Source: Thraustochytrium sp. TN22
Taxonomy: Eukaryota; Sar; Bigyra; Thraustochytrida; Thraustochytriidae
Assembly (NCBI GenBank): GCA_013306675.1
Contig: JABLUY010000016.1
Coordinates: 186,001 to 250,000 of the forward strand
DNA length: 64,000 nt
Direction of reading: 5' to 3'
Shown here piece by piece: positions 11,214 through 61,540 of this stretch (position 1 is the stretch's first letter; each line of letters opens with the position of its first letter). The notes beneath the pieces were generated by a model. That model ran no database searches. It was given only the letters and a program-made list of their open reading frames with translations, and had not been told where the DNA came from. The position numbers and the translations under genes are program-made.

Positions 11214-11852
11214 TCAAATCGACACGTAACCCTGGCCTACCCAATCGACGACCGCCGGGTCGCAAGGAAGTACAATGCGGTAAGCCTCGCTGCCAAAAGC
11301 GTCCTGGACGCAGATGCACTGCACGCCATCCTTATACGCCGCCTCCTTCTCCTCGTCGTCGATGTTGTCGTCGTCCTTTAGCCCCAAACGTGTCGACGCC
11401 TCATCCGGGAGCAAGACGAATGGGTCAAAGACGCGTTCACCTGGCTGTGGCGCCCGGGTGAACCGCACGAATACGCACGGGCCCAGAGTCCGCTTGCCAA
11501 GCAGAAAGGGACCTTCCAGACGGCCGGAGCGCGAATTCCAGCGCAGTCCCTCCAGGAGGGGCCCGGGGAGGATCACGTCGGCCCACGTCGCGTGCTCGGT
11601 CCCGACGCCCAAACGTGCGGCAACATGCAGCTCCGGGACTGCACAGCCCAGCCGCTTCGCTGCTTTCGCGAAGATGTCCCAGAGCTGCGCGCGAGCAGCT
11701 CGGGGCCGCTCACTAGCTGCGGCACCCAAATGCACCACCGTGGCGGACGTAGACAGCTCTTCAGCGGACAGAGCTCCTCCCATCTCTGACTCCGCCTCAG
11801 CCTGCTGCTGCCGCAACTGCTGCTCTGGCTCCACCAAAACTGTGCTTTTACG

Positions 11853-11887
<35 letters not shown>

Positions 11888-20800: not shown

Positions 20801-23800
20801 AGACCGGAGCGAGGCCGCAGCCTTGCGGCTTGAAGCCCAGTCGGGTCAGGGCGTGCGTGAGCAGTAGGCTGAGGAAGTTGTCGAGGCGGGCCTTTGGATT
20901 AGGCGCGGCTGGGCGGCCCGAAATGGTGGGCGCCTGCGCGAGGACGAGGTTGGTGCGCTTGCGCCGCAGGCGTGAGCGGCGGTTGGAGGGCGCGGCCGCG
21001 GCCTTGACGGCCTGGACGGCCTCCTTGGTGACGCTATGATCGCTGCCAAAAACGCTAGCAACGACCTCTACAGCGCTCTCCAGGTCACGTGCGCGGCCCT
21101 CGATAATGTGCATTAAGGCCTCGGCAATGTACTCTCGCACAGCCCGCAGCGGGTTCAGGGCTCCGTCCGCCGCTTGGAAGCCTTCCTGAGTCAACGAGCT
21201 GTGGCGCCGGGCTGGGGATGCAATGGTACCCAGGGCGCTACGCGCGCGTCGATAGGCCCGCCAGGTCGCATCGACGACAAGCTTGGCGACCGCCAAGTTC
21301 CAATGCTCGCCCTCGTCAATGAGCCGCAGCGCGGCGCAGAGCTCGCGGCCAAGCTTGCGAGCGATCGTGGCCGATAGGCTGAATCTGCACATGAGCAGGA
21401 CAGCGCTCACCACGGCGCAGTCTGCGGAGGTGATGCGATGCAGATCGAGCACCGGGTCGAGCGCGCGGACCATGGGGCGGTCCTGCAAGGTCGCGAAGAG
21501 CGCCGGTCTCGGTCCGGTGGCCCTGCTGACCCGAGAGAAGAGGTCTGCACGCGCCGCCTGCACGCTCTGTGCAAGAGACGCTTGGTGCACGTGGGGCAGG
21601 GAGTCGAGACCCTCGATGAGACCAACAGCACAGGTGGCAAAAATTCCGCGCAGGGTGCGCTCAAACGGCGCGAGCTGCGCCATCCAGGCTGCGTGGACTG
21701 AGACGCAGCGCGAGCCGACCAGGCGAGCGAGCTCGTGAAGTGTGGAGGTCTTGCCGCTGGCGCCGGGCGCCGTGACGCCGCCTACGGCGCCCTGGGCGGC
21801 GGTGACCGCCAACGCCCGCAGGCACTGGAGCGTGACGGGCGCAATGATGAGGCGGGCATGCTCCTCGCTGTCCCAAGTGAGCCCGTGCACGAAGGAGGCC
21901 CCGAGCGTCTCGACGCGGATGACCTCGTCGCCCTCCGTGGCGTAGGCGCGAAAGCCGAGCTCCCAGAGCAGCGGCTGGCGGGCCGCGGCTTCTGCGCGGT
22001 CTCGGAAGTCCTGCAGCGTGGTGACGACCGCGTGCAGGCGGATGTACTCGGCGTGCGAGCTCGCAGCCGTGATACTTCTGCAGACAGACACGATGAGCGC
22101 GTCCAAGTTGGCGACAGCACTTTCCAGGCTTGCGCTATCGGTCTCGGCGTACGGCACGGAGCTCTTCACAAAGGAGGCTGTCTGCACCACATCGAGGGCA
22201 GCCTCGTCGTAGTACGAGGCAAGGTCGCCGATGCGGCGTTCAACGAGCTGCGTGCAGCACATGCGGAGGGCGACGAGGAGGGCGTCGAGCCCGGGGCACT
22301 CACGCACCGCGTCCAGGATGGCGGCCACCGGCACCTCGTCCTCGACGCTGCCCAGCACGGCGGTCCACTCCGCAACGCTGGAGGCGAACTGCGAGCGGCA
22401 GCGCATGTCGAGATCGTGAAGCCAGATCTCGAGCGGCACGCGGCGTGAGTACTCGGCGCCCTGCTTAAGATCGCGAATCTTGAAGGCGATACCGAGGCGC
22501 GACTCGAGCGGCAGCGGGGCGGCGTCGCGCGGCCGGAGAACTGAGCAGACCGCGAGCCTTGTGATTTGGATCTCGGGCGTGAGCGCATCGACCTTGGTCG
22601 GCAGCGTGTCGGCATAGCGCGCGAGCACGTCCTCGGCAGCGCTGTCTGAACGCTGTGCCGCGAGATGCTCCCATTCCAGGTCGAGGTCCTCCACGTGGTC
22701 GAAGATGAGGCCGAGGCTTTTGCGCAGGTAAACGAGGTCGGTCTGCGCGGAGCTGAGGAGCTGCAGAAGCTGGTGGTCCGAGACGAAGTAGAGACGCGGA
22801 CACCGCTCGCGGTGGTGCTCGAGCTTGGCACAGAGCGACTCGTTGAGGGCGTCCATGCATTCGTTGAGGTCTTCAAAAAGCTTGAGGGCAGGCAGGCGAA
22901 ACTCATGCGCCAGCTGAAGATTCGCCACTGCGTCGAGGCGCCGGCCCTGCAGGACGTCAAGGATCAGGTGTAACGTGACGCGCCGGTCACTGACAGTGGT
23001 GGTGAACTGGTCCCAGAGTTTGTTGGCAAAGGCGAAGGACTTGAGCTCCTTGTCCGAGAGCGGCACAGGCTCAGAGCCAGTGACCACCTCGGCAAAGAGC
23101 GCCTCGATTGGCGCCCACCTTGTCTGGAAGGTTTTCGCGGACTCGAGCCACTGCTGCAAGTGCGTAATGGCGCGCTTCCAGGCGCTGGCGCGCTCCAGCA
23201 TGCCGCCAGACCTTGTGTACTGTGACGCCTGGATGCCATCCATTTGCACGAGCTGATCTTCAATCATTTGTAGGATGTTGTCCACGTCGAGCGTCTTGCT
23301 GGCCGGCAGGGGCACAGGCGGCGAACCAGCAAGAGCGGAGTCCTCGGCTGAATCCTGGTGTTTCTGCAGTCCCTGCTGCTGCTGCTGCTGCTGCCGATGC
23401 TGATGCTGCTGATGCTCCTTCCCTGCCCCGGCGCTAAAACCATCACCGCCATCATCTTCGCCGTTGCTGCCGTCATCACCGGCGTCCACATCGCTGCTGC
23501 TGGTCCCCTCCTCGCCCCGGTCGGGGCACCACGGGCTGCTTTTGGCCGACACAACCAGGACATGCGAGACGGTCACGCCTGCCTGGGCAGTCATGATACT
23601 GTGCGCCTGGAGGTCGGCTGTCATGCGGTCCATGTTGAGCTCAACGTCGTACTCGTGCTCTGCAACGGCGCAGATCTCAGCAATCTCGTCAAAGTAGCGT
23701 GCGACGTGGAGGTCCTCGAGCACATGGAGCGTGACGTTGTGAAGGTTGAGCTCTTTTCGAAGGTTCTCACTGCGGGATGCCTGTCCTCCGCCATCGTTTT

Positions 23801-26800
23801 TAAGGCTTTGCGCGTTCCTCGTGTCGGCACCCATGCTACATGCGCTATCCACTGCATGCTCTGAGAGTGTGTCTGCGGGAGGGTCTGAGTCTGCGCCTGC
23901 GTCCATCATGTCCACGTCTGCATTGGCATCCACGCCAACTCCTGCGTCAACGTCTGCCTGTGCGTCGGTGTTTGCGCGTGTGAAGGGGTCCGGAGGCGCA
24001 GTGCTGGCACGGCTACTGCTCCTGCTGCAGGAGTCCGTGAGCCCGAGGAGGTCGGCGAGGTAGCTGCCATCAAGTGGGACCATGACGGAGACGATTTGAC
24101 GCCAGTGGCGCTCGCGAAGCGCCTTGCTGCAGAGCAACCGCAGAAGCGGGAGGTTCTCACCAAAGTCATGCAAGACCTGCTTGGCAGCGAGACAGACGGC
24201 AAGCGCATTGCCGTCGAGCGTGCCGTCGAGCGCGTCGAGCAAGGCGTCGATGGTGGGAACCCAGCCCGCGTCCGCGTCGCTGATGAGTTCTTCGACGTAG
24301 GTGACGTCCACTTCGTTAAAGGGCCCACGGCGCCAGAGCTGGAGCGCCTCGCGCGAGTCCGCGACGACGGACCAGAGCTGTGAGTAGAGGGCTGTTCGCT
24401 CGTGGAGCGCGGCGATCTGGGCGAGCAGGCGCTCAGCATCGACGGTACTCTCGCTCTTGACGAGCGGGATGCCGAGCTTCGCGCGCTCCGGACGGTCGAA
24501 GACAGTGAGGCGCGAGGCGAGGAGCTCCATGGCCTTGTAGGCGTTGCTGACGGTCTCGTGGAGGTTTTCTGCTTCAGCGGCAATCTGTGTCGCTTCGGAT
24601 GGATCGCGCTTGGTCGCGAGCTGCTCGAGCTTGGGGCGTAGCTGCTGGTCGACATAGTCCTTGAAGCGCGCCTTTTCGACGCAGAGTGTGTGCAGGAAGT
24701 CGCTTTCCTGCGAGTGAGCTTTGATGACACAGGCCACGCAGGTGCGCCTGAGGTGTGCCGGCTGGGCGAGGAGGCGCGCGTGCAGGTCAACACTGGGGTT
24801 GTCACGCACATAGTGTAGGCGGTCGAGAAGGTCGAAGCGGCGCTGCGCCGGCGCGAGGCAGCGTGCGGCAATGTCTGCGAGGATATCGTCAAGATCAACC
24901 TCGTACTGCCAGAGCCTGCTGAGGTCGTCGGCTGTCTTGACCTTGAGCTGGATGTTGCGCTGGAGGTCGTGGTACTCGTCGTGCGCGGCGCGCAGCGAGA
25001 GCATGGCCTGTGCATGGATCTCGGAAAGAATGCGTTCGGCCATGCGCGCGCATTGCGCGTGCAGCGCTGCCTTGGCGCTCTGGAAGTCGATCTTGAAGAG
25101 CGGGACGCGCACGTGATTGGGCAAATCATCGTCGATGCGCGCTGCCACGGAGCGCAGGCGCAGGACCTCGCACTCGCTGGCCTGCAACATGGCGAGCTCG
25201 ACCTTGAGTGCGTCGACGCGCTTGAAGCCGGCATCGAGGTCCGCCTCTGACGTCGGAAAGGGCTCGGTCTGGCGAAAGGTGAGCGTCCGGCCCTTGTAGG
25301 AGCGAAAGCGCGACTCGTCGCGCGTGGGAATAGACTCGGTCGCCTCGTTGAAGGGGGCGAGCAGAAAGGCGCCTTCTTCTTCACCGCCAGCGCCCCTGCG
25401 GTCGCCGCCGCGCTTCACAGAGAAGGCAATATTCTCGCCAACGGAGGCATCGCTGGAGCGGCTGCTGCCAGGACTGCTCAGCGAGGAGGAGGAGGAGGTC
25501 GAGGCCGTACTGGCGGCCGTGTGTGCCCATCCGAGGCTGCTGTTCGCGTCCGGATCATCCTCGTCGTGTTCGGCGAAACCTTGACCGTCCAGCGTAGTCC
25601 CATCCGGCAAGGTCTCAAGAAGCGAGATGGAGGGGGGCGCGCGGAACGAGGATGTGCTCAACGGCATGGTCCTGCCGAAGCGTGCAGAGGAACTCCGCGA
25701 GGAGGACTTGATGAGCAGAAAGCTGGCAATGTCGGCACTGCTGTCGAGGCGGCGGGAGCGCTTGGCGAGGGGCAGGGTGAACCACTGCACGTAAAGACTG
25801 AGGTCGAGGTGCGCGACATGCTGCAGATCGGTGTTGATGCCCTGGAGAATGGCTGCCTCGAGCCCGTGCAGCTTCTCGGCGACCTCCTCAGCGGCATCCA
25901 TGGATTCGGTGACGATGGCGTCGAGGCTGCATCTGGCGCCCCAAATACAATCGGCGACGAAGTCGAAGGGATCGTCCGGCAAGTCAGCGCCCTGAAGCAT
26001 GCGGTGGAAGATGAAGAGACGATGCCCGTTGAGGTCGGCGCGGCTGCGACGCACGGTTCTGATACTCTGCAGGAGAATGGGCAGGAGCGGCTCGCTCGCC
26101 GGGCCGCCTCCGTGCGGCATGGCGTCGTCGCGGCGATGCATGGAGCGCAGCGCTGCAAGGACTGGGACGAGGTCATCGGCCGGGTCAGCAATGGACAGCA
26201 GCGTGCGCGCGAGCTTCTCGAGCGTGGCGAGCACACGCTGGCGCACGTCGTCAAGCGCTGGCTTGAAGACGGCGCCCTCGTGGAAGTGCAGCTCGACTCC
26301 AAAGAGCCCGGCGTGGTGTGTCTGCGCTGCGAGGCAGTCCTCAAGGCGCACGTCGATGCGGCGGCCTCGCGACGGCTCGTGGCGCATCACCGTGGCGCGC
26401 AGGCCGGTGCTGGCCTCGAAGATGTTCACGTACCGCTGCAGGGAGACTCGCATGAATTCGAAGAGGTGCTGGCGCGCCACGAGGCGTGTGCGGAGCACGA
26501 GACGCTGTGTGCAGCTGTCCTGGTACTCCTCGAAACTGCGCTCGTAGAAATTGTAGATGGCGCCGTCCGGGCTGGGCTGGCCCTGCAGCTTGCCGAGGCA
26601 CGTCATGATGATGCTATGCAGCCACTTGCTCTTGAGTAGGTGCGCGATCGTCTGCAGGTGCAACTCCTGCTTTTTGGTGAAGGCCTCGGCGCGCATGGGC
26701 GGATGAAGGTCATCGAGATCGGCAAAGAGGGTTACCTCGCGGCCGTTGGCCGCCAGGACGCGCGGGAGCTGGAGTCCGGCCTGGTGCGCGAGCGACACAA

Positions 26801-28808
26801 AGTGGCGAAGATGCTCGTAGCACTCCAGCATGTGGGTGCCGAGTGCCGCGCACGCGTCTGCGAATGGAATATCCCGCTCGCAGCTGCGCTGGCGGCTGCG
26901 AGCTTGCCAGCGGACGAGGGCGTCCTGATGGTCCCGGTACACGGAGCGCAGATGCCATTGCTCCACTTGGAAGGCGTGCAAGGCCAGCATGCGAGGGCGC
27001 GCCCACTCGGGCGTCCCATTCCACTTGCGCAGGAGCCTACGGCGGCGGCGTTGCAGCTGCCGCGCTGGCTTGCTGCTCAAGAAGAGGTTGTACGCACAGG
27101 CCGCGTCGTGAAGGTGCGTCTCCGACTCTCGTGGAAGCTCGTCGCCGAGCATTTCGCGCGCTTTGCGCGCCACACGCTGCAGCGGGGCGGCGCCGTGCTC
27201 GCGTAGCCCGAGGCGGCGCGCGACCTGGTCCAGAAGGACTGACTCGTTCGTGGACGGCGCATCCCGGTGTACGGGCCCCTCTCGAAGCATGGGTGCTGGG
27301 AGAAGGCGCGTGAAGATGGTGTCGACGAGCTCCTGCACGCGGTTCTGCCATGGCGCGTCCGGCTCGTTGAAGGCGGGCTCGCTGCAGTCTGCCCCATGCA
27401 GGAGGCGGTTCATCTCCGCGAGAACATCCGCGAGCGTGAGTGAAGCATGCGAGTCTTGGCGCCCGAGGTCTGTTTTGTCCACGTCTGCGTCCGTATCATT
27501 CTGAACGATCTTGGTGGCGGAGGCGGGGGCGGCAGCGCTCGCGAGCGGAAAGTTGAGCGCGGACGCGATAATGCGGCTGCGCATGGACCAGAGGCGAGAG
27601 GCACCATCGCCTGCGTCAGCGAGGTAGGCGTCCTGGGGGCGCGGGTGGGCGGCGAGGAAGTGGGCATGCTTCCAGCGCATGCCTTCAATGAAGCGCAGCT
27701 CGTCAGCCAGACGAACGCGAGTCCGATAGCAGGCGATAGCCTCGTTTTCAAAGCGGACGATGGTGCGCGGGCAGTGCTTGCGGGCGACCCTTCCATTGCC
27801 GTGGATGCTAACGCCAATGCTGTAGAGGCGCCTCTCCGGGTCGTAGTCGTGGACCTGGCAAGGCACCTCGACCAGGACGGCGCGGAGGGTGCTGAAGGTT
27901 TGCAGAAAGGCCGGCGTTGCGCCCTGCGAGCGCCCTGTGAGGTGCGCGTGGCGGTCGTCAACCCAGTCCTGATCATGTAGCGTGCACGGCGGGCCGGGCT
28001 CGTGGCCGCAGACACCAGGACCGAGGTCAAACTCGTGGAGAAAGAGAACCCGCGTAGTGCGGTCCTTGTCCGGCAGCGTGAAGGTCTTGCGCTGCGGCGC
28101 GCAGACGTGCGCGTCGTCCCTGGTCCCATTTGACGATGCCGTCAGCGCGCTGTCTGGTCGTGGCCGCTTGCGTGGCGGCGTCTTGGCAAAATGCACCAGA
28201 CGGCTCGTATGCGTGCCGACGAGCCGGAACGCTGGACTGTATGCGTTCGCGATGCGCGAGCTCATGGAGTCCTGCGGCGAGGCGAGCGAGAAGGATCGCG
28301 ACGGGTCTGCTTGGAGTGTCGCCGCGGCACGTAGTTTGCGGTCAAGGCTGATGCGGCGCGGCGAAGACGCGAGCCGCGGCGAAGGAAGGCCTGCAGGCCG
28401 CCGGGGTGCTGCCGGCTTTTCTGCTGCCTTCGCCACATACGACTTCCACGCAGACGGGTCCTGCGCTCTGACCGTGTCCGCGAGCTGCGCGCGCGAGTCT
28501 GCGAGCTCCTCCACGCGCGCGTCAGCGAGCTCCTCCACGCGCGGGTCTTGTTCGCGGTCCTTGGCCAGCGTCTCCTCCTCGTCCTCGTGTTCGTCCTCCT
28601 CGTCGTGGTGCGTCTCGTCCTCCGCCGTTTCAGCGGCGGCGAAGAAGACGAGCTCGCGCGTCACGAGGCGCTTGTCGAGGCCGCCCTCACGCAGGTCCAC
28701 GCGCTTGAGCGCCGCCTCCGTGCCTTGCAGCGCGCCCATGATGGCCTGCAAGGCCCTGTCCCAGTCTTCATCGCCGCCGCCCTCTGCGAGCGCGTCGTCC
28801 AGGTCCAT
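11214..28808 (-). CDS. Giant, divergent dynein heavy-chain-like protein with eroded ATPase sites
   Basis: A single intronless ORF of 5,864 codons; ordinary heavy chains have 4,000-4,600. The dynein order is recognisable. AAA1 (about 2330) has APGASGKTS for GPAGTGKTE and GLIEGLD for the Walker B CFDEFN. AAA2 (about 2720) has an intact GKPATGKS and VVLDGPLHDS. AAA3 (about 3190) has GPRVSGKR, with VFVDDLALN kept. AAA4 (about 3605) has no P-loop. A coiled-coil stalk spans about 3930-4250, with KDTIPDEIL as in axonemal chains after the microtubule-binding tip. AAA5/AAA6 follow, with an acidic insert near 4395. The AAA1 Walker B glutamate is lost, so ATP-driven motility is doubtful. Gln-rich runs lie near 1800 and 5646, and acidic runs interrupt linkers. 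The N-terminal tail is ~450 residues longer than usual. The open frame argues for function. A midasin assignment was considered and rejected. Confidence 0.85.
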
Positions 28809-43869: not shown

Positions 43870-45581
43870 CCTGCCGCCCGTGCGCTCGTGCCTGCCTCGC
43901 CGCGCTGCGTGCCCGTGCCGTCGCTCGCTCGCTGTCAATCGGCTTTGCTCGCGCGGCCGGGGCTGAGCGGAGCGGCCGCCACGGCCGTGTGCCGCTTCTC
44001 GCTTCTGGCAGTCACAGGCAGTGCGGTCTGCCCTCCGCCGGCCGCTCGCGGCGCCGGGCCCGCCGCACTCAGCCACACCGGTGGAGGCTGTGAAGCCCTG
44101 CCAGCGCCAGCACAGAGCAGTGCAGGGCGGCGCGCGCGCCACTCCGCAAACACGCGCGCCAAATCGCGGAGACCGCGCCCGGCACCGCCGAAAGCGCGGC
44201 CGCGCTCTTTCACTGCCGCTGGCCCGCCGGGCACTGCGCAGGCCGCAGGCGCGGGCATGACTGGCCGTGGCCGCCGCCGGCGCTGCTGCTCTGGAGCCTC
44301 TGGCAGGACGCCTCGGACTCGGAGACGAGCACGGGCCCGGCGCTCGCGCGGAAGCGCGCGGCGAGCGAGCGCCCCGGCGGACCGGCCGCGGGAGCGGGGA
44401 GCCTGGCCGGCAGTGCCTGGCAGCGGCTGAGGGCCTGAGCCTGTCAGCAGTGTCAGGCGGCAGCGCGGTGGCGGCCGGGCACGGAGCGCCACCTTGGCGG
44501 TTATCCGCGAGCTGCAGCTGATTGATTGATCTCCGGGAGCTCAGGCGGAACGGAGCTGAGGAGACGCCGCGCGGCCTCGGACTGGGCCCCGGACTGGGAG
44601 GACTGACTGCCGGGCAGTGCCGCTGGCGGCTGGCCGGCCGCTCTCCCGGTCAGGCGCTGGCAGGCTGGGCGCTCGTGGCATCGCATCGCAGGATCGCAGC
44701 AGCAAGGCTTGGCAGTGACGGTGGATGGAGAAGAGATCGCGAGTCTCTAGCTAGGCTAGAGCTGCTCGCTGACTACTCACTGGCACTGTCAGCGTTCTTC
44801 CGTCGCGGATCGCGGCCGCGAGGGCCTGCCACAGCTGGTCGTCACGACGGTGTCTCTCCCGGCAGGTCGGCGCCACTGCAGCTGCAGTGCTGCCAGTGCC
44901 ACCACTGGCCACTGGGGGCGCAGGCCGCGCAGCGTCTCGGTCGACCTGCCAGGCTGCCACTCCGAGTCCGAGTCTGGCCGCGCCGCGTCTGAGCCAGGCA
45001 GACTGAGGCAGACTCTGGCCGCCACGGCTCCGACGGCAGTGGCGGCGCGGCACGGCACAGTCCGCTCGCGGGTACTGGTACCACTGCAGTGCAGCACGAG
45101 CTCCCCGTCGCTGTGAGACTCTGAGCCCAAGCCCGGGCCTGAGCTGCAGAGCAGCGGCACTGGCCAAGGCAGGCGCAGCACTGCACGCGCAAGTGCAGCA
45201 CGCGGCACGCCACCGTGACCGTGACGACGGGCCGCAGGAAGCAGGTCTGCCACAAACGGCGTATGACCGTACTAAGTTAACTATGTCTGACGCCGCCCGG
45301 CCTCGATGCGACAAGTTGCCAAGCTTCGGACGCCGCGCCGCGCCCGAACGATGACACGGGCGTAGACAAGGCGCGCCCGCCGCGCCTGCGCTGGCGCAGG
45401 GCCAGCGCGAGCAAGCGCCAGCTCCTAGTTGCGGGCGCGGCGGGCCGGCCAAAGCGGACTTGCGGCGGCCGAGCGCCACTTGTGCGCCGCGCAGGTAACG
45501 CAAGTCGCAAGGCCGGCCTTCCGCCTCGTCCGGGCGCGGCGCAATTCAAATCGTGGGCGGCGGCGGCGCCGCGCGCGCGCG
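43870..45581. other. Divergent intergenic between SET and large Rab genes
   Basis: About 1.7 kb with high GC and many overlapping frames (to 250 codons) lacking any motif. It should hold both promoters. No RNA gene was recognised. Confidence 0.45.
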
Positions 45582-47121
45582 ATGCTGCGCGGCGGCGAGG
45601 CGGCGGCGGCGGCGGCGGCGGCGGCGGGCGGCGAGGCCGGCGCCGCGGCCGGCGGCGGCGGCAGCGACGGCGCGGCCGCGGCGGGCGGCCGCGGCGAGCC
45701 GGCGCGAGACCCGGGCCGGGGCCAGGACCGCGCGCGGGACGAGGCAGCCGTGGACGAGGACGCCGTGTACGAGGAGGACGAGGACGAGGAGACGCAGGAG
45801 GATGGCGCGAGCGGCGCGGACGCGCGTCTCGGGCCGAGCGGCGCCGAGGAGGCGGACAACCTTCTGGACGACGACGGCGTCAGCGGCGACGACGAGGACG
45901 ACGACTGCGACGACCTGGAGCTCGAAGACTTTTCGCAGCGGCGCGGCCGCAACCGCAGCCAGTCGTTTGTGAACGAGCTCGAGGACCAGGTCTTCCGTGA
46001 AAAAGAGGAGGAACTGCGTCGCAAGATCCAGGAGGAGCAACAGCTCCAGCAGGCGCAACACAGCCGCCAGTATCAGCAGCAGATGCTCCTGCAGCAGCAG
46101 ATGCTCCTGCAGCAGCATCAGCATCAGCATCAGCATCAGCAGCAACAACAACAGCAGATGCAGATGCAGATGCAGATGCAGATGCAGATGCAAACGCCCC
46201 AGCGCAACGGCCGCGGGGGGCTGACCAGCTACGACTCCATGGAAAACATGGCGCCGGCCATCAGGACGCAGCTCTCCGCCAAGACGCTGGAGATCATCAC
46301 CAACCTGGATCACACAAAACACAATGCGCGCCTCAAGTCCTCCGGTAGCGGCCTCTTCCCATCGCCGGTCGTGCGCATGTCTGCCGAGGAGGCCGAGGAG
46401 GAGAGCCGCCTCGAGCGCCTGCCGCTCGACCCGTCCGGCCAGGCCAGCGGCGCGGCTCAGGCCAAACAGACCGCCGCCACGCCCGCCAAGGCGCGGCGGC
46501 GCAAGCGCCCCAGCGTCACCGGCGGTCTGCCCTCGATGAACGGCAAAAAGAAGGCAGCCGCCGCCACTGCCGCCGCGCAGGCTGACGACTTGCCCCTTTC
46601 GCCGACGTCAGGAACCTCAGGGACGTCAGGGACGGACACGGCCAAGACCGCCGTCGCCGTCGACGAGGAGGTCGCGACCGCTGCCGACAGCGCCGCGGTG
46701 GCTACTGCCGCGGCAGTAGCCTCCGCGGCGGCGGCCGCTGCAGCAAGCGCTCCGAACGCCCAGGCCGGGGCCGATCCCAGTGCCGGCCAGGAGGTCGAGG
46801 GAGCGCCGGCCGAGGCTGCGACACCCAATCCCGGCGCCGAGACTGGCGCTGCAGCCGCGCCGGCGGACCCGAGTGCACCGGCAGAGACGGGCAACGCAGC
46901 CCCTGCGGCATCATCGCCCGCCGTACCGCCGGCCAACGGCGAAGCGCCTGTCCAGGCAGAGCCGCCCCCCGGCGAAGCCCCGCCCGCACCGCCCGCGGCG
47001 ACCTTGGAGGTCCCGCGGCAGCAGGCAAAGCAGGGCGGGCCGGCCGAGCCCACCAAGCCACCGCCCAGCGGCGGCCTCGGCGGCGGTCCGTTGCCGCTTA
47101 CGGCGGTCGGCCGTAACGAGG

Positions 47122-47157
<36 letters not shown>

Positions 47158-48014
47158 GGCGCGCGGGGCCGACGAACTTCTTCCGCGCCGCCATGATGGC
47201 CTTTTTGTGCAGCAGCGGCGCCCGCACGACGCGGTCCGTTTCAGGCGCCGAGCGGCCCGGCAGCCTGCCCGCGGACGCGCACACGGACGCCGCAGGCCCG
47301 GCGGCGCTGGGTGGGCGGCGGCCCACCGGCGAGGAGGCCGCGCTGTATCGGCGCACGGAAAGCACCAACACGGCGAGCTCGGACCAGAGCGTAGACAGGT
47401 ACGACCACCATGTGAAGATCCTGCTGCTGGGCGACAGCGGCGTGGGCAAGACCAGCCTCATGCTGCGCTTCGCGGACAATCGGTTCCAGGGCAACCTCAT
47501 GAGCACTGCTGGCGTCGACTTCAAGGTGCGGTACCTGGAGGACGCCGAGGCGACGCAGGGTAAGCGCATCAAGTGCCAGATCTGGGACACGGCCGGTCAG
47601 GAACGCTTCCATGTCATCACGCGCACCTACTACCGCGGCGCGCACGGCATCGCGCTCGTTTACGACGCGGCCAACGAGCAGAGCTTCAAACAGATCAGCT
47701 ACTGGATGGAGAACATCCGCAATCACGCCGGCGAGGATGTGTGTGTGGTGGTCTTTGGCAACAAAGTCGACATTCCATCCCGTGTTGTCTCTCCGGAGCA
47801 GGGCCGCGCGGCCGCCGAGGCCTACGGCGCGCACTTTTACGAGACCAGCGCCAAGGTCGGCACCAACGTGCTCGAGGCCTTTGAGACGCTCTCCATGGAG
47901 GCTGTCGCGCGAATCGAGGCCAAGCGGCCCGCCAATGCCGATCCCAAGCCCGGTGCCACCGGCGGCAATGGCGTGCGCATCGACGCCGGCAAGTCTGTCT
48001 GCGCTTGCATGTGA
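45582..48014 (+). CDS. Large Rab GTPase with ~600-residue acidic/low-complexity N-terminal extension
   Basis: An 810-residue protein whose last ~205 residues are a complete Rab of the Rab8/Rab10 type. It has P-loop GDSGVGKTSLM, switch I STAGVDFKVRYL, DTAGQERFHVITRTYYRGAH, FGNKVDI, and ETSAKVGTNV. It ends in CACM, giving a CaaX-like prenylation site with an extra Cys. The N-terminal region has Ala/Gly runs, an acidic stretch (YEEDEDEETQEDG), a serine motif RNRSQSFVNELEDQ, a short coiled coil, Gln/His and Met-Gln repeats, then a long Ala/Pro/Glu-rich linker. No EF-hand or other known 'big Rab' module was seen. The Met at 45582 starts the Ala/Gly segment; an internal start at the Rab domain cannot be excluded, but no intron signal was needed. 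Confidence 0.85.
46063..46191 (+). repeat. CAG / CATCAG / CAGATG repeats inside the large Rab ORF
   Basis: Codon-level repeats give poly-Gln, Gln-His and five Gln-Met units. A unit of ~15 bp (ATGCTCCTGCAGCAG) is also doubled. All keep frame. Confidence 0.9.
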
Positions 48015-49418: not shown

Positions 49419-50055
49419 GGCCTTGCAAGCAAGACCGAGCGTGTGGCCTTGCTCGTGTGAGTGACTTGAGTGTTCGAGCGAGGAACGGATAGCTGGGCTC
49501 GCTCGACGGCGAACCCGGCTTGCTGACGTGGCCTGACGTGGCCTACCCTGGTACCAGACAGACACTGGCATGGATTCCACCTTTTCTTTCTCTCTGACCT
49601 GAATTCGCTTCTCATTGTCCTTGCGTCAAGAAGGGTGGTGCAACCCTTGCCCTGTGGTGAAAGCTCGCGTGCGACGATAGCGACACGTGCGAGACGGCAC
49701 TACGAAAGCGACAACAGCGCCCCTCTCTCTCTCTCTCTCTCTCTTTGGAGCCCTCCCTCCTGCTCGCAATGGATGACTGGGACAGCGTCGCGTTCTAGGC
49801 TAGCTGCAGTGGTCACGGTGGTGGTACTGGTAGGCTAGTCTCGCTCAGATTCGCCACGCCTCCCTGTCACTGAGGCTCGCCACGCCTCATCAGAGTCACT
49901 GACAGGCTCGCCACGACGGGGTTGGACGGCCGCGGCAGAGCGCCTCGGCCTCGCGGTCGGCAGACGAGGAAGAAGACCCGCGCGCGCGTGCGTGGGCCCG
50001 AGCGGACGGCGGCGGCGGAGCGGCGGCGGCAGCGACGGCGGGCGGCGCGGGCACG
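49419..50055. other. Divergent intergenic, LRR / ferredoxin-kinase fusion
   Basis: About 640 bp. It holds a (CT)11 run (49723-49744) and a small cluster of three TCGCCACG units separated by GTCACTGA-like spacers (about 49850-49917). No gene is seen. Confidence 0.5.
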
Positions 50056-53046
50056 ATGACGGACTCGGAGGTGGGCTTCTCGCGCGCGGAGATGGACGAG
50101 ACGTCGCTGGCGGGCGCCATGGAGCCGCCGGCCGTGCACGTGTTCGTCATGTACAAGGACGCGAAGGCGTGGGCGGCCAAGGTGGAGAAGATGGAGGAGT
50201 CGCCGATCGGGGCGGTGCAGGCGGCGGTCAAGGAGCTGAACGAGGAGCAGGATGGCGCGTTCGAGATCTGCACGACGGCCGCGCAGGCGCCCGGCGACGG
50301 CCTCGAGGAGGGCGACGTGGTCATCTTCCCGCAGCGCGTGCGCGTGCCGCAGGGCGCGGCGCGCGCGCGCGAGATCGTGGAGGCGCTGATGAAGCAGCGC
50401 AAGGAGGGCGGCGAGCTGCAGCTGAGTGGGACGGAGCGCGTGGAGGAGGGCTTCGTGTTCGTGTGCTGCCACGAGGCGCGCGACGCGCGGTGCGGGTTCT
50501 GCGGGCCCAAGATTCTGGCGGCCACGGAAAAGGCGCGCGCGGCACGCAAGCTGCAGGACTCGGTGCGCGTGGTGCGGTGCTCGCACATTGGCGGGCACCG
50601 GTTCGCCGGGATCAGCGTGGTCTTTCGCAACGACGCGGAGACGACGTGCGACTGGCTGGCGTACGTGCGTGACACGGAGGAGGACGCGAACCACATGCTC
50701 GACCTGGCGACGGGCGTGGAGGAGACGCCGCAGCTGCGCGTGTGGCGCGCGCGCAACGGCATGACACCGGCGGAGCACAAGGACTTTTGCGCTGCCTGCG
50801 CGAAGAAGCAAGGCGGCGACATCGAGGACCTGGGCGGCAAGGGCGCGGCGCCGCAGGTGACGCGGCCGTCGGTCAAGTCCAAGGCGAAGAAGAAGAAGGT
50901 GGAGGATATGACGGAGGAGGAGCTGGATGCCGAGGTGGGCTTTTCGCGGGCGGAGCTGGAGAACCGCGACAGCCCGAACGGCGACGTGAACCCGCCGGAC
51001 GTGCAGCTCTTCGTGGCGTTCAAGGAGCCGAGCGCGTGGGAGGGCAAAGTGGAGAACATGAAGGACTCGCCGATTGCCACCTTCGGGGCGCTCCTCAAGG
51101 AGCTCTACCCGTCGATGCGCAAGATGGAGGTGTACCCGACGGCCGTCGAGCCGGTTGAGGGCGAGCAGGACGGCGACGTCCTCGTGTACCCGCAGCGGCT
51201 GCGCGTGCCGAACGGTGTGTCGCGCGCGCGTGAGGTCGTCGAGGCGGTCGTCAAGCACCGCTCCGAGGGCACGCCCCTGGAGATTGCGGGCAGCGAGCCG
51301 ATCGAGGGCGCGCGCGTCTTCGTGTGCTGCCACCAGGCGCGCGACGCGCGCTGCGGGTTCTGCGGTCCCAAGATCGTCGACGCGCTGCGCCGCGAGGCGG
51401 CTCAGCGCGGCCTGGAGGCGCGCGTCAAGGTTCAAAAGTGCTCACACATTGGCAGCCACCGCATGGCCGGCATGGGCATCGTGGCGCGCGACGACCCGGA
51501 CAAGACCTCGGACTGGCTCGCCTACTTGACGGACAGCACCGAGGACGTGGGCCACGTGCTGGACCTCGCCACGAACGCCAGCATGACGCCGGCGCTCGAC
51601 AAGTGGCGCGCGCGCGTGGGCCAGACCCCGGACGAGCACAAGGACGCTTGCGCCGCCTGCGCGTGCAAGAGCGAGGACAAGCCAAAGGCCACGAGCGGGC
51701 CGCGGCCCAAGGTCCTCTTCGTGCTGGGCGGCCCAGGCGCCGGCAAGGGCACGCAGTGCGGGCTCATCAAGGAGGAGTTCGCCGGCGTCGAGCACCTGTC
51801 GGCGGGCGACCTGCTGCGCGCCGAGCGCCAGGACCCGACGTCCAAGAACGGCCAGCTCATCACCGAGTACATCAAGGAGGGCAAGATCGTGCCGGTGGAG
51901 ATCACCGTGGAGCTGCTGCTCACGGCGATGAAGCGCAGTTCCGCCACGACCTTTCTCATCGACGGCTTCCCGCGCAACCAGAACAACCTGGAGGGCTGGG
52001 AACGCGTGGTGAGCGAGGACGATGCCGACGTCTTGGGCTGCCTCTTCTTCGACTGCCCAGAGGAGGTGATGGAGTCGCGCCTCCTGGAGCGCGGCAAGAC
52101 GTCGGGCCGGTCCGACGATAATCTGGAGTCGATCCGTAAGCGCTTTCACACGTATGTGGACTCGACGCGGCCCATCATTGAGCACTTTGAGAAGCAGGGC
52201 CAGTGCTTTCGCGTCGAGGCGAACCGCGAGGCGCACCTGGTTTTCGCCGACGTGCGCCGTGCGCTGCGCGACGATCTCGGCCTGGACGCCGCCAAGCCGC
52301 GCGTAGTCTTCGTGCTGGGCGGGCCCGGCGCCGGCAAGGGTACGCAGTGCGAGCTGCTCACGGAGAACTTTGACCTCTGCCACCTCTCGGCCGGCGACCT
52401 CCTGCGCGCCGAGCGCCAGAACCCGGACTCCAAGGACGGCGCCCTCATCGAGAGCTACATTAAGGATGGCAAGATCGTTCCGGTCGAGATCACCGTCAAC
52501 CTGCTCCTGCGCGCCATGTTTGCGTCTGGCCGCGGCAGCTTCCTCATTGACGGCTTCCCGCGCAACAAGAACAACCTCGACGGCTGGGCGTCCACCGTGC
52601 GCGACCAGGCTGACGTTCTGGGCTGCCTCTACTTTGATTGCCCTGAGGAGGTCATGGAGAAGCGTCTCCTGGAGCGCGGCAAGACCTCGGGCCGCTCCGA
52701 CGACAACCTCGAGTCCATCAAGAAGCGCTTCCGCACGTACCAGGACGAGACCATGCCCATCATTAACCACTTTGACAAGGACGGCCGCTGCTTCCGCATC
52801 GAGGCTGACCGGAACAAGACTGCCGTTCAGGCCGACGTTAACAACCTCTTTGAGAACCGCCTCGGCTTGCGCCCCCTTAGCGCCTGGACCTCGGCGCCCG
52901 CCGCGCCCGCCGCGTCGTCCTCCTCGTCCTCCTCGCCCAAGCCCTTTGAAGCGGCTCGCAACCTGCCCGTCAGTCTCAAGATGGCGCTCGGTGCGGCTGC
53001 CGCGGCTGGCCTCGTCTACCTTGGCGTCCGTGCCTCGCGCAAGTGA
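50056..53046 (+). CDS. Fusion: two Apd1/Aim32-type [2Fe-2S] domains + two UMP/CMP-kinase domains + C-terminal anchor
   Basis: A 996-residue protein. Two repeats of ~290 residues, both opening EVGFSRAE, are thioredoxin-like ferredoxins of the sucrase/ferredoxin-like (Apd1/Aim32) family. Repeat 1 has CCHEARDARCGFCGP and CSHIGGHRFAG, with candidate ligands C137/C146 and H177/H181. Repeat 2 has C424/C433 and H464/H468. This Cys-x8-Cys plus His-x3-His pattern is what Apd1/Aim32 use for bis-His cluster binding. Two nucleoside-monophosphate kinases follow, with P-loops GGPGAGKGTQC (about 558 and 755), HLSAGDLLRAER, KIVPVEITV, DGFPRN and RGKTSGRSDDN, typical of UMP/CMP kinases. A Ser/Pro linker and one hydrophobic helix near 970-988 ending RASRK suggest tail anchoring. 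All catalytic motifs are intact and nothing interrupts the ORF. The physiological link between redox and kinase parts is unknown. Confidence 0.9.
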   Translation: MTDSEVGFSRAEMDETSLAGAMEPPAVHVFVMYKDAKAWAAKVEKMEESPIGAVQAAVKELNEEQDGAFEICTTAAQAPGDGLEEGDVVIFPQRVRVPQGAARAREIVEALMKQRKEGGELQLSGTERVEEGFVFVCCHEARDARCGFCGPKILAATEKARAARKLQDSVRVVRCSHIGGHRFAGISVVFRNDAETTCDWLAYVRDTEEDANHMLDLATGVEETPQLRVWRARNGMTPAEHKDFCAACAKKQGGDIEDLGGKGAAPQVTRPSVKSKAKKKKVEDMTEEELDAEVGFSRAELENRDSPNGDVNPPDVQLFVAFKEPSAWEGKVENMKDSPIATFGALLKELYPSMRKMEVYPTAVEPVEGEQDGDVLVYPQRLRVPNGVSRAREVVEAVVKHRSEGTPLEIAGSEPIEGARVFVCCHQARDARCGFCGPKIVDALRREAAQRGLEARVKVQKCSHIGSHRMAGMGIVARDDPDKTSDWLAYLTDSTEDVGHVLDLATNASMTPALDKWRARVGQTPDEHKDACAACACKSEDKPKATSGPRPKVLFVLGGPGAGKGTQCGLIKEEFAGVEHLSAGDLLRAERQDPTSKNGQLITEYIKEGKIVPVEITVELLLTAMKRSSATTFLIDGFPRNQNNLEGWERVVSEDDADVLGCLFFDCPEEVMESRLLERGKTSGRSDDNLESIRKRFHTYVDSTRPIIEHFEKQGQCFRVEANREAHLVFADVRRALRDDLGLDAAKPRVVFVLGGPGAGKGTQCELLTENFDLCHLSAGDLLRAERQNPDSKDGALIESYIKDGKIVPVEITVNLLLRAMFASGRGSFLIDGFPRNKNNLDGWASTVRDQADVLGCLYFDCPEEVMEKRLLERGKTSGRSDDNLESIKKRFRTYQDETMPIINHFDKDGRCFRIEADRNKTAVQADVNNLFENRLGLRPLSAWTSAPAAPAASSSSSSSPKPFEAARNLPVSLKMALGAAAAAGLVYLGVRASRK

Positions 53047-59101: not shown

Positions 59102-61540
59102 ATGGCGATCGTGGACCAGCAGCAGCAGCAGGAGCGCGAGCAGGAGACCATGGCGTCGGTGCCGCTCAAGAAGGAGCAGCCGCCAGCCCTGCTGGTGCCC
59201 AAGATCTCGGAGGCGGACTCGTCGGCGGGCGAGAGCGAGACCAAGATGAGCGCGAGCGCGAGCTCGGCGTCGCTGGCGAACCTGGACGCCACGGAGACGC
59301 GGTCGCACAGCAACTCGGTGCACTCGCAGGCGGCGGCCATCCCGCTGCTGGGCTTCGGCACCTTCAACGAGTTCAAGGACGGCGACAAGGTCAAGGAGGC
59401 GGTGAGCGTGGCGGTGCGCGAGGGCTACCGCATGATCGACTGCGCCTCCCTCTACGGCAACGAGAAGGAGGTGGGCGAGGCCCTGACGGAGTGCGTGGAG
59501 GCCGGCGAGGTGGAGCGCGACGAGCTCTTCATCTGCAGCAAGCTGTGGTGCTGGGACGCGGCGCCCGAGGACGTGGAGACGGCGTGCCGCAAGAGCATGG
59601 CCGACCTCGGCGTGGAGTACCTGGACTGCTACATGATGCACTGGCCGAACCGCATGGCCAAGGGCGGCAAGATGGTGTCGCCGGACTTTGGCGGCAAGTT
59701 CGAGTACGACGTCGTCCACGACGGCACGGACATTGAGAAGATCATGGAGACGTACGCCGCCATGGAGCGCCTCGTGGACGAGGGCCTGGTGCGCACGCTC
59801 GGCGTGAGCAACATGGGCCCGCGCACGCTGCAGGGCCTGCTGGAGCGCTGCGCGGTGCGCCCGCTCGTGCTGGAGGTGGAGATGCACCCGTACCTGCAGC
59901 AGCCGGGTCTGCTGGAGCTCTGCGAGAAGGAGGGCGTCAGCGTGGTGGCGTACTCGCCGCTGGGCAAGGTGGGCTACCGCAACAACGGCGACCCGTCCAT
60001 TCTCGAGGACGAGACCATTCTGGAGATCGCCGAGGAGACCAACAAGTCGCCGGGCCAGGTCATCCTGCGCTGGGGCATTCAGCGCGGCGTCTCGGTCATC
60101 CCCAAGAGCCTCAACCCGGACCGCATCCGCGCCAACCGTGAGGTGCTCGACTGGCGCCTGACCAACCCGCAGATGGAGCGCATCAGCACGCTGGACCGCG
60201 GCTTCCGCTTCTGCAGCCCGCCCTGGTTCGACCTCGAGCAGGACTCGGAGTACTCGGTGCGCGGCGGCCACCCGGGCACCCAGGCCTTCCGCACCCCGTG
60301 CGAGGTGGATGGCAACGGCTGCTTCCGCAACAAGTTCGAGCGCCCGGGCAAGTACCTCGAGACCGAGATTGTCATCCAGCGCGGCATCCTCAAGAACCTC
60401 AAGACCATCGGCAAGACCGTCATCCCGGAGGACTCGCACGAGGCGCCGTGCTACCTGGTCACGGACGACATCGTCGACGGCCTCTACGGCGACGAGGTGC
60501 TCCAGGGCTTCCGCGACTGCGGCCTCAGCGTCGAGAAGATCGTCATCCCGTCGGCCGCCATGGACGAGTCCGGCGAGCCCTCGACGGAGCCCTTCAAGAA
60601 CTCGGAGCAGTTCCACCGCATCGTCGACACCATCCTCGCCAACGGCGTGTCCAAGCACACCTGCCTCATCTCGCTCGGTGGCGGCACCGTCGACAACATC
60701 ACCGGCACCATCGCCGGCACGCTCTACCGCGGCATTAAGATGGTCACCATCCCGACCACCTCCATGGCCATGCTCGACGCCTCGTGCGACTTCAAGAAGG
60801 CCTTCAACGTGCAGGAGTTCGGCAAGAACCTCCTCGGCTGCTACTACCCGGCTGACTACCTCGTCATGGACCCGGACGCGCTCTACTCGCTCTCGGACCG
60901 CCACATGCTCAACGGCATCGCCGAGGCCCTCAAGCACGCGCTCTGCCAGTGCACCGAGTTCACCGACCGCATCGTCAGCCCCCTGCGCGGCAAGACCGGC
61001 GAGGAGCTCTCTGCCGCCCTCCACGACGGCGACTACCTCCTCAAGCTCATCATCGAGTGCATGGAGAAGAAGGTCTCCACCCTCGGCCCCAACTACAACG
61101 CCGAGCACGCCTACAACGAGATGGTGCCCCAGTACGGCCATGCCCCCGGCCATGCCATCGAGCACCTCTCCTGGCACCACGGCAACGAGCCCATGCTCCA
61201 TGGCGAGGCCGTCGCCATCGGCATGTGCGTCTCCGCCGAGATCGCCTATCTGCTCGGCATCTGCGACGAGTCCGTCGTCGACGAGCACTACGACATCGTC
61301 GGTGCCACCGGCCTGCCCTGCTTCGTCCCGGAGAAGATGACCATTGACCAGATCCTCGAGACCCTCAAGTTCGACAAGCACTTTGTCGGCGGCAAGGCCA
61401 CCATGGGCCTCGCCAAGCGCATTGGCTGGATGGCCGCCAACCCGGAGAACGACACCTACGCCTTCATGATCGACAACGATACCATGCGCCAGGCCTTTGA
61501 GCGCAACATTCAGCGCCGCGACGCCAAGGCCTCCAACTAA
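59102..61540 (+). CDS. Fusion: aldo-keto reductase + DHQS-superfamily sugar-phosphate cyclase
   Basis: An 812-residue bifunctional protein. After a Gln/Ser-rich leader, residues about 78-385 form an aldo-keto reductase with the full tetrad D113 and Y118 (MIDCASLYGNE), K147 (CSKLWCW) and H180 (MHWPN), plus VIPKSLNPDRI for NADPH. Residues about 400-812 form a sugar-phosphate cyclase: NAD site SLGGGTVDNITGTIAG, IPTTSMAMLDAS, FGKNLLGCYYPADYLVMDPD, and metal ligands E608 (GIAEALKH), H680 (YGHAPGHA) and H700 (LHGEAVAIGM). The GKNLxGxYYP box resembles 2-deoxy-scyllo-inosose synthase more than dehydroquinate or epi-valiolone synthases. Inferred role: cyclise a sugar phosphate, such as glucose-6-phosphate, to a ketocyclitol, then reduce it to a carbocyclic polyol (deoxyinositol/quercitol type). 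Met 59150 is an alternative start. Confidence 0.88.
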   Translation: MAIVDQQQQQEREQETMASVPLKKEQPPALLVPKISEADSSAGESETKMSASASSASLANLDATETRSHSNSVHSQAAAIPLLGFGTFNEFKDGDKVKEAVSVAVREGYRMIDCASLYGNEKEVGEALTECVEAGEVERDELFICSKLWCWDAAPEDVETACRKSMADLGVEYLDCYMMHWPNRMAKGGKMVSPDFGGKFEYDVVHDGTDIEKIMETYAAMERLVDEGLVRTLGVSNMGPRTLQGLLERCAVRPLVLEVEMHPYLQQPGLLELCEKEGVSVVAYSPLGKVGYRNNGDPSILEDETILEIAEETNKSPGQVILRWGIQRGVSVIPKSLNPDRIRANREVLDWRLTNPQMERISTLDRGFRFCSPPWFDLEQDSEYSVRGGHPGTQAFRTPCEVDGNGCFRNKFERPGKYLETEIVIQRGILKNLKTIGKTVIPEDSHEAPCYLVTDDIVDGLYGDEVLQGFRDCGLSVEKIVIPSAAMDESGEPSTEPFKNSEQFHRIVDTILANGVSKHTCLISLGGGTVDNITGTIAGTLYRGIKMVTIPTTSMAMLDASCDFKKAFNVQEFGKNLLGCYYPADYLVMDPDALYSLSDRHMLNGIAEALKHALCQCTEFTDRIVSPLRGKTGEELSAALHDGDYLLKLIIECMEKKVSTLGPNYNAEHAYNEMVPQYGHAPGHAIEHLSWHHGNEPMLHGEAVAIGMCVSAEIAYLLGICDESVVDEHYDIVGATGLPCFVPEKMTIDQILETLKFDKHFVGGKATMGLAKRIGWMAANPENDTYAFMIDNDTMRQAFERNIQRRDAKASN

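What the first reader, a model, noticed from the sequence alone, without database searches (positions are those of the whole stretch)
50056..53046. Four-domain fusion of tandem bis-His [2Fe-2S] ferredoxins with tandem UMP/CMP kinases on a membrane anchor
Seen: two repeats with C-x8-C and H-x3-H ligands, two intact kinase cores and a terminal hydrophobic helix in one 996-codon ORF. Known: Apd1/Aim32 proteins bind a [2Fe-2S] cluster with two Cys and two His, and UMP/CMP kinases are normally soluble single-domain enzymes. Inference: a membrane-tethered enzyme that couples pyrimidine nucleotide supply to redox or iron status. I know of no described protein with this architecture.
Basis: partly seen in the sequence, partly recalled or inferred. 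Interest (0 to 1): 0.82.

Follow-up and report, generated by a model that had tools for sequence, protein, structure and literature searches.

The report
Iron-sulphur ferredoxin–pyrimidine kinase fusion protein
One gene of what looks like a marine thraustochytrid protist joins two Apd1-type iron-sulphur ferredoxin units to two intact UMP/CMP kinases and a possible membrane tail; the protein layout is real and unusual, but a working link between redox chemistry and pyrimidine supply is unproven.

Summary
Window 50056-53046 (+) is one uninterrupted 996-codon frame with two Suc_Fer-like domains (99.3 and 80.2 bits, cut-off 34.9) and two UMP/CMP-kinase domains (246.8 and 255.1 bits, cut-off 207.6). 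Both ferredoxin units carry C-x8-C and H-x3-H; unit 1 fits the published motif exactly, unit 2 has Ser for one Gly. Two separate genes are very unlikely: no stop before 53044 and no in-frame ATG between 51583 and 51928, inside kinase 1.

The host assembly (37.9 Mb) is probably a thraustochytrid, judged by a PUFA-synthase-like frame. These are its only two Suc_Fer-like places found. The four UMP/CMP-kinase-type domains found all lie in multi-domain frames, so kinase fusion looks like a habit of this genome.

The membrane anchor is plausible but borderline. Coupling of kinase activity to redox or iron status is inference only. Conservation of the joined order could not be tested: no set of eukaryotic genomes was available. 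I read it as a new architecture of known families, probably bifunctional, with unproven cross-talk.

The parts
50056..53046 (+). Single 996-codon ORF: ferredoxin unit 1, ferredoxin unit 2, UMP/CMP kinase 1, UMP/CMP kinase 2, Ser/Pro/Ala linker, hydrophobic tail
   Evidence: nearest upstream in-frame stop at 49900
50107..50676 (+). Suc_Fer-like domain 1 (PF06999, profile 1-169/191)
   Evidence: 100 bits; 99.3 bits; cut-off 34.9
50464..50493 (+). C137-x8-C146, predicted cluster ligands of unit 1
50584..50598 (+). H177-I-G-G-H181, predicted cluster ligands of unit 1; exact match to the published H-x-G-G-H
   Evidence: motif as printed in PMC11138216 (passages)
50788..50799 (+). C-A-A-C (residues 245-248), possible thiol pair after ferredoxin unit 1
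   Evidence: function inferred
50977..51534 (+). Suc_Fer-like domain 2 (PF06999, profile 2-168/191)
   Evidence: 80.6 bits; 80.2 bits
51325..51354 (+). C424-x8-C433, predicted cluster ligands of unit 2
51445..51459 (+). H464-I-G-S-H468, predicted cluster ligands of unit 2; Ser replaces one Gly of the published motif
51649..51660 (+). C-A-A-C (residues 532-535), possible thiol pair after ferredoxin unit 2
   Evidence: function inferred
51661..51711 (+). Short linker (17 codons) between ferredoxin unit 2 and kinase 1; no in-frame stop and no ATG
51712..52266 (+). UMP/CMP kinase domain 1 (TIGR01359 1-184/185), catalytic core stretches intact
   Evidence: 246.8 bits; cut-off 207.6; alignment
52303..52851 (+). 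UMP/CMP kinase domain 2 (TIGR01359 1-184/185), catalytic core stretches intact
   Evidence: 255.1 bits; alignment to a solved UMP-CMP kinase
52981..53028 (+). Candidate C-terminal membrane helix (residues 976-991), K before it and RASRK after it; tail-anchor-like, borderline hydropathy

Best explanation
A single nuclear gene of a thraustochytrid-like protist encodes one polypeptide with two working modules. (Shown by sequence) The C-terminal half is a tandem of two UMP/CMP kinases with intact core stretches; (inferred from the family) these use ATP to turn UMP, CMP and probably dCMP into the diphosphates. (Shown by sequence) The N-terminal half is a tandem of two Apd1/Aim32-type units, each a Suc_Fer-like domain holding C-x8-C and H-x3-H; (inferred) each binds one [2Fe-2S] cluster, and because thioredoxin-like ferredoxins act as dimers, the tandem may be an intrachain pseudo-dimer that transfers electrons or acts on thiols. 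(Inferred, weak) A short C-terminal helix with basic flanks tethers the protein to a membrane facing the cytosol, perhaps the mitochondrial outer membrane. The most likely benefit of the fusion is co-localisation and fixed stoichiometry of a redox protein and a pyrimidine kinase, with each module working by its own known chemistry; direct redox gating of the kinase is possible but not shown.
For: Single frame with coding periodicity across the junction. All four domains exceed curated cut-offs on their own. The kinase half matches solved UMP-CMP kinases best (7e9v, 1tev, 1qf9; E 2.6e-61 to 2.1e-59); the P-loop, GKIVPVEIT, DGFPRNxNNLxGW and RGKTSGRSDDN stretches are kept in both copies. The ferredoxin ligands are kept in both copies. 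Low-confidence AlphaFold2 models of the two units (mean pLDDT 56.8 and 60.3) have thioredoxin-like [2Fe-2S] folds among their best PDB matches: Aquifex ferredoxin 1m2b/1m2a (ranks 1-2) and Azotobacter 5abr (rank 9) for unit 1 (prob 0.94-0.97); chains named V2 of respiratory supercomplexes (ranks 1-2; read by me as the complex I 24-kDa subunit, from the chain name) and 1m2d/1m2a (ranks 9-10) for unit 2 (prob 0.98-0.99). These are the only Suc_Fer-like places found in the assembly, so the fusion apparently carries whatever Apd1-like role this organism has. No bacterial-type CMP kinase was found. PMC11138216 (passages): thioredoxin-like ferredoxins function as dimers.
Against: No expression, biochemical or relative-genome evidence. 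Both models are of low confidence, no PDB match reached E 0.001, and unrelated folds stand among the top rows (profragilysin and RtcA for unit 1, calsequestrin for unit 2, besides the thioredoxin-family ERp44). No PDB match by sequence for the ferredoxin half. Unit 2 departs from the published H-x-G-G-H by one residue. By Kyte-Doolittle the tail helix is no more hydrophobic than a soluble kinase segment. Yeast Apd1 needs a free C-terminal Trp for function (PMC11126956, PMC10623007; passages); here the ferredoxin units are internal and the protein ends RASRK. A rough NG86 dN/dS of about 0.45 for the kinases (0.28/0.62) and 0.72 for the ferredoxin units (0.41/0.57) is below one but unreliable under this codon bias, so constraint on both copies is not strongly shown.
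Confidence: 0.62

Rival explanations
1. Passive fusion: the genome readily fuses genes, and the two halves do unrelated jobs from one polypeptide with no selected coupling.
For: Four of the four UMP/CMP-kinase-type domains found are in multi-domain frames with quite different partners: Suc_Fer-like here (two of the four), aldo/keto reductase at C435, HAD/pyrimidine-5'-nucleotidase-like at C434. The same window has an aldo/keto reductase joined to 3-dehydroquinate synthase. Partners differ, so no single functional theme explains them.
Against: One other fusion, pyrimidine-5'-nucleotidase-like plus UMP/CMP kinase, is metabolically coherent. Not every nucleotide kinase is in a long frame: stop-to-stop frames of 149 aa for one NDK match and of 207 and 366 aa for two adenylate-kinase matches (the 207-aa match lacks the first five profile positions, so it may have another exon).
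Confidence: 0.35
2. Redox- or iron-gated kinase: cluster state, or the C-A-A-C thiol pairs after each ferredoxin unit, switches the adjacent kinases on or off.
For: The linker between unit 2 and kinase 1 is only 17 codons; both ferredoxin units carry a C-A-A-C pair after the domain; a review says such ferredoxins, Aim32 among them, may act as a thiol switch on targets (PMC11138216 passages).
Against: No sequence mark of an allosteric contact. The same kinase type stands without a ferredoxin in the C435 paralogue (58.5% and 59.7% identity to kinases 1 and 2). Kinase 2 lies far from the ferredoxins in sequence.
Confidence: 0.15
3. Not one protein: two neighbouring genes, or an assembly or frame artefact.
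For: GC-rich genome in which long spurious frames are common (522- and 586-aa antisense frames); introns may exist in this genome, since one adenylate-kinase match appears in two pieces (C453).
Against: No stop in frame before 53044, no in-frame ATG between 51583 and 51928, 17 codons between unit 2's last cysteine pair and the kinase match, constant codon periodicity. The whole-assembly search shows one 1047-codon open frame, but it reads the same assembly and is no independent check.
Confidence: 0.04
4. dNTP or stress module: the fusion places an Apd1-type antioxidant ferredoxin beside the enzyme that makes CDP and UDP, substrates of ribonucleotide reductase, to protect deoxynucleotide supply under oxidative stress.
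For: Loss of yeast Apd1 or mutation of its iron-binding pocket gives moderate hydroxyurea sensitivity (PMC5126785 passages), and aim32-deleted yeast is hydroxyurea sensitive, which N-acetylcysteine did not restore (PMC8482512 passages). That these kinases feed ribonucleotide reductase is general knowledge.
Against: The Apd1 sensitivity is rescued by N-acetyl-cysteine and suppressed by Yap1, which points to oxidant defence rather than nucleotide supply. No ribonucleotide reductase part is in the fusion.
Confidence: 0.1

Closest known systems
Apd1 / Aim32, bis-histidinyl thioredoxin-like [2Fe-2S] proteins of yeast (PF06999 Suc_Fer-like; that yeast Apd1/Aim32 belong to PF06999 is recalled)
   Same: Suc_Fer-like domain above cut-off twice; C-x8-C and H-x3-H ligands twice, 30 residues between them
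   Different: Two units in tandem, internal position, no C-terminal Trp, joined to kinases and a tail; unit 2 has H-x-G-S-H
Eukaryotic UMP/CMP kinase (TIGR01359; solved examples 1tev, 7e9v, 1qf9)
   Same: Both kinase domains above the curated cut-off with intact core stretches
   Different: Two copies in tandem, joined to ferredoxin units and a possible membrane tail
Viperin and CMPK2 (functional partnership of an Fe-S enzyme and a CMP kinase)
   Same: An Fe-S protein paired with a pyrimidine nucleotide kinase; in bacteria 15% of viperin genes lie next to a CMPK2-like kinase gene (PMC11249213 passages)
   Different: Viperin is a radical-SAM [4Fe-4S] enzyme; no radical-SAM domain was matched here. 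An analogy, not membership
Thraustochytrid fusion gene crtIBY
   Same: Multi-domain fusion in the presumed same protist group (PMC10016063 abstract start and PMC5924542 title and abstract start, seen only in the listing)
   Different: Different enzymes; crtIBY joins steps of one pathway

Membership tests
Suc_Fer-like / Apd1-Aim32 family | PF06999 match above the curated cut-off | tested here: met
   99.3 and 80.2 bits versus 34.9
Suc_Fer-like / Apd1-Aim32 family | Four ligands as C-x8-C and H-x3-H (CX8CXnHX3H as printed in PMC8482512) | tested here: met
   Both units (passages)
Suc_Fer-like / Apd1-Aim32 family | Stricter C-x8-C-x24-75-H-x-G-G-H (as printed in PMC11138216) | tested here: inconclusive
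   Unit 1 exact; unit 2 keeps all four ligands but reads H-I-G-S-H (passages)
Suc_Fer-like / Apd1-Aim32 family | Thioredoxin-like ferredoxin fold | tested here: inconclusive
   Low-confidence models; thioredoxin-like [2Fe-2S] proteins among the best PDB matches but none at E 0.001 or better
Suc_Fer-like / Apd1-Aim32 family | Bound [2Fe-2S] cluster | not testable with these tools
   Needs EPR, Mossbauer or UV-visible spectroscopy
Yeast Apd1 subtype | C-terminal Trp for CIA targeting (a feature of Apd1, not of the whole family) | tested here: not met
   Protein ends RASRK
UMP/CMP kinase (TIGR01359) | Score above the curated cut-off for each domain | tested here: met
   246.8 and 255.1 bits versus 207.6
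UMP/CMP kinase (TIGR01359) | Intact P-loop, NMP-binding and short-lid stretches | tested here: met
   Both copies in the alignment; alignment of kinase 2 to solved UMP-CMP kinases. Roles of the stretches are recalled
UMP/CMP kinase (TIGR01359) | Phosphoryl transfer to UMP/CMP | not testable with these tools
   Needs an enzyme assay
Tail-anchored membrane protein | Single hydrophobic helix close to the C-terminus with enough hydropathy to span a membrane | tested here: inconclusive
   16-residue uncharged run, 5 residues from the end, first-ranked on GES; Kyte-Doolittle 1.54, below a soluble kinase segment at 1.62

The most novel reading that the evidence does not exclude
The fusion is a Rosetta stone for the poorly understood Apd1/Aim32 ferredoxins: their real partner process is pyrimidine nucleotide metabolism at a membrane, with a covalent [2Fe-2S] pseudo-dimer that protects or gates CDP/UDP supply, and thus dNTPs, under oxidative or iron stress. 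That would also recast the hydroxyurea sensitivity of the yeast mutants.
Probability: 0.1. Interest if true: 0.75.

Novelty: new variant of a known kind. Interest (0 to 1): 0.45.

Why it matters
[quoted passage not shown] A natural fusion of the only Suc_Fer-like units found in a genome to an enzyme of known chemistry gives a concrete, testable partner hypothesis. By analogy only, it is a second pairing, besides viperin and CMPK2, of an Fe-S protein with a pyrimidine nucleotide kinase. The value is tempered by the fact that the UMP/CMP kinases found in this genome are also fused to unrelated partners.

Tried and rejected
Relatives: the search for related loci with the two-unit alignment and with the ligand-region alignment in genome contigs and viral contigs, and tblastn of unit 2 in plasmids, gave no relative. 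The patterns chosen were narrow (for example EVGFSRAE), so absence in prokaryotes is not shown; PF06999 itself rings in 4 of 14 control genomes, over the cut-off in 2.

Two genes joined by chance: rejected on the junction evidence. A separate stand-alone UMP/CMP kinase: sought with TIGR01359 (14 matches, 3 over cut-off), the kinase-2 protein (10 matches), PF00406 (14 matches) and PF02224 (0 matches; 14 of 14 controls ring). I found none in a short frame. The four UMP/CMP-type domains counted are this ORF twice, C435, and C434 (189.3 bits, below the cut-off, but TIGR01359 is its best NCBIfam match). The other rows were dropped: the C16 domain scores higher as adenylate kinase; C185, C222, C364, C244 and C453 score 93.6 bits or less on TIGR01359.

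NG86 dN/dS was computed but is not trusted, since GC at codon position 3 is 0.88-0.95 in the four domains. A viperin-type reading was rejected: no radical-SAM match. Literature: searches returned 0 papers; the 7 papers listed showed no such fusion by title, and the 10 of 160 papers listed held none of the three protein terms; (0 papers) concerned the C434 fusion. These searches cover open-licence PMC only, so I do not claim that the architecture is absent from print or from annotated thraustochytrid proteomes.
Full report
What is there. The frame 50056-53046 (+) encodes 996 residues. Pfam finds two Suc_Fer-like (PF06999) and two adenylate-kinase-type (PF00406) stretches, and each quarter passes its curated cut-off when scanned alone. 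NCBIfam's UMP-CMP kinase family TIGR01359 matches both kinase domains, at 246.8 and 255.1 bits against a cut-off of 207.6. The best PDB sequence matches of the kinase half are UMP-CMP kinases (7e9v, 1tev, 1qf9). The first half has no PDB match by sequence at E 1.

Is it one gene? In the coding frame the only stop is at 53044. Between the cysteine pair after ferredoxin unit 2 (C-A-A-C at 51649-51660) and the start of the kinase match (51712) lie 17 codons without a stop or ATG; the next in-frame ATG after 51583 is 51928, already inside kinase 1. Codon-position-3 GC is 0.91-0.97 in the windows around the junction. Third-position G falls and C rises along the gene (G 0.60, 0.47, 0.43, 0.29; C 0.35, 0.47, 0.49, 0.59 for the four domains) without a step at the junction (all). 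Two separate genes are therefore very unlikely, though no transcript was seen.

Ferredoxin half. Both units carry C-x8-C, 30 residues, H-x3-H: residues 137/146/177/181 and 424/433/464/468. Among the top Foldseek matches are thioredoxin-like [2Fe-2S] ferredoxins and chains named V2 of respiratory supercomplexes, with E-values of 0.0019 or weaker, mixed with unrelated folds: supportive, not proof. Each unit is followed by C-A-A-C, whose role is unknown. The units are 52.8% identical.

Kinase half. The two domains are 69.6% identical to each other and 58.5% and 59.7% identical to the C435 kinase of the same genome, so the duplication probably followed the split from that paralogue. P-loop, NMP-site and lid stretches are intact in both. 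The order S-S-K-K, rather than S-K-S-K, suggests that ferredoxin unit and kinase were duplicated separately (inference).

Tail. Residues 976-991 are the only run of 15 or more residues without D, E, K, R, H, N, Q or P; K precedes it, RASRK ends the protein, and its windows rank first on the GES scale. Peak Kyte-Doolittle hydropathy is 1.54, under the 1.62 of a segment of kinase 2. This could be a weakly hydrophobic tail anchor of the kind found on the mitochondrial outer membrane (recalled), but it is not established.

Host and genome context. The assembly holds 37.9 Mb in 453 contigs. It has a 3044-codon frame matching the omega-3 PUFA synthase model TIGR02813 (2539.7 bits with neighbours, cut-off 1010.1; 11 of 14 controls ring, 0 over the cut-off) beside a second, 2083-codon frame that matches part of the same model. 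With the neighbours (Ras-family GTPase, LRR protein, M24 peptidase, Y-family polymerase) this points to a thraustochytrid (inference from recalled PUFA-synthase distribution; the rRNA search failed). One paper gives 58.10-65.69 Mb for three DHA-producing strains (PMC6050695, passage), larger than this assembly, so the genus is open. PF06999 has two places in the assembly, both in this ORF. UMP/CMP-kinase-type domains number four: two here, one at C435 joined to an aldo/keto reductase (with a sub-threshold GOLD match, 23.0 against 28.4 bits), and one at C434 joined to a HAD domain resembling pyrimidine 5'-nucleotidase (TIGR01993 129.4 bits, cut-off 142.9; TIGR01359 186.2, cut-off 207.6). All four are in multi-domain frames. 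Shorter stop-to-stop frames hold other nucleotide kinases: one NDK match in 149 aa, adenylate-kinase matches in 207 and 366 aa. No bacterial-type cytidylate kinase was found. Gaps in the assembly could hide a stand-alone gene.

How it likely works. The kinase half should make UDP and CDP; the ferredoxin half should bind up to two bis-His [2Fe-2S] clusters and transfer electrons or act on thiols. Thioredoxin-like ferredoxins act as dimers (PMC11138216, passages), so a tandem in one chain could be a pseudo-dimer (inference). Yeast Apd1 depends on its C-terminal Trp and does not complement when capped by 25 residues, although the capped form still binds iron independently of the CIA machinery (PMC11126956, passages; also PMC10623007, passages). 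In this protein the units are followed by about 450 residues, so cluster insertion, if it occurs, should not follow that C-terminal route. Direct gating of the kinase by the cluster is not supported by anything in the sequence. The hydroxyurea link of Apd1 (PMC5126785, passages) and Aim32 (PMC8482512, passages) makes a nucleotide connection thinkable; [quoted passage not shown]

Verdict. It is a new arrangement of known families. Whether it is a selected coupling or one of several fusions in a fusion-rich genome is open, and comparison with other labyrinthulid genomes would decide most of it.

Noticed in passing
window 59102-61537 (+): An 812-aa frame joins an aldo/keto reductase to 3-dehydroquinate synthase (PF00248, PF01761, PF24621); an 89% identical copy lies at C103:35195-37603 with one TAA inside.
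   Followed up: partly
L022:2233-4083 (own genome C434): A 617-codon frame joins a HAD domain resembling pyrimidine 5'-nucleotidase to a UMP/CMP-kinase-type domain: opposing activities in one protein, if both work.
   Followed up: partly
L017:3037-5682 (own genome C435): An 882-codon frame with a sub-threshold GOLD-like stretch, a full UMP/CMP kinase and an aldo/keto reductase.
   Followed up: partly
L024:1882-6507 (own genome C16): A 1542-codon frame with an NDK-like domain, two adenylate-kinase-type stretches and a sub-threshold Dpy-30 motif, resembling axonemal nucleotide kinases (recalled).
   Followed up: no
window 50788-50799 and 51649-51660: C-A-A-C follows each ferredoxin unit at the same place; a possible thiol or metal pair not in the published ligand motif.
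   Followed up: no
window 11217-28808 (-): A 5864-aa open frame; the part 11217-20000 has no Pfam match at E 1e-4; the rest was not scanned.
   Followed up: no
window 45429-48014 (+): Ras-family GTPase domain at residues 663-824 behind a low-complexity N-terminal stretch of about 650 residues in the same frame.
   Followed up: no
window 50056-53043: Third-codon-position G falls from 0.60 to 0.29 and C rises from 0.35 to 0.59 over the four domains, without a step at the junction.
   Followed up: no
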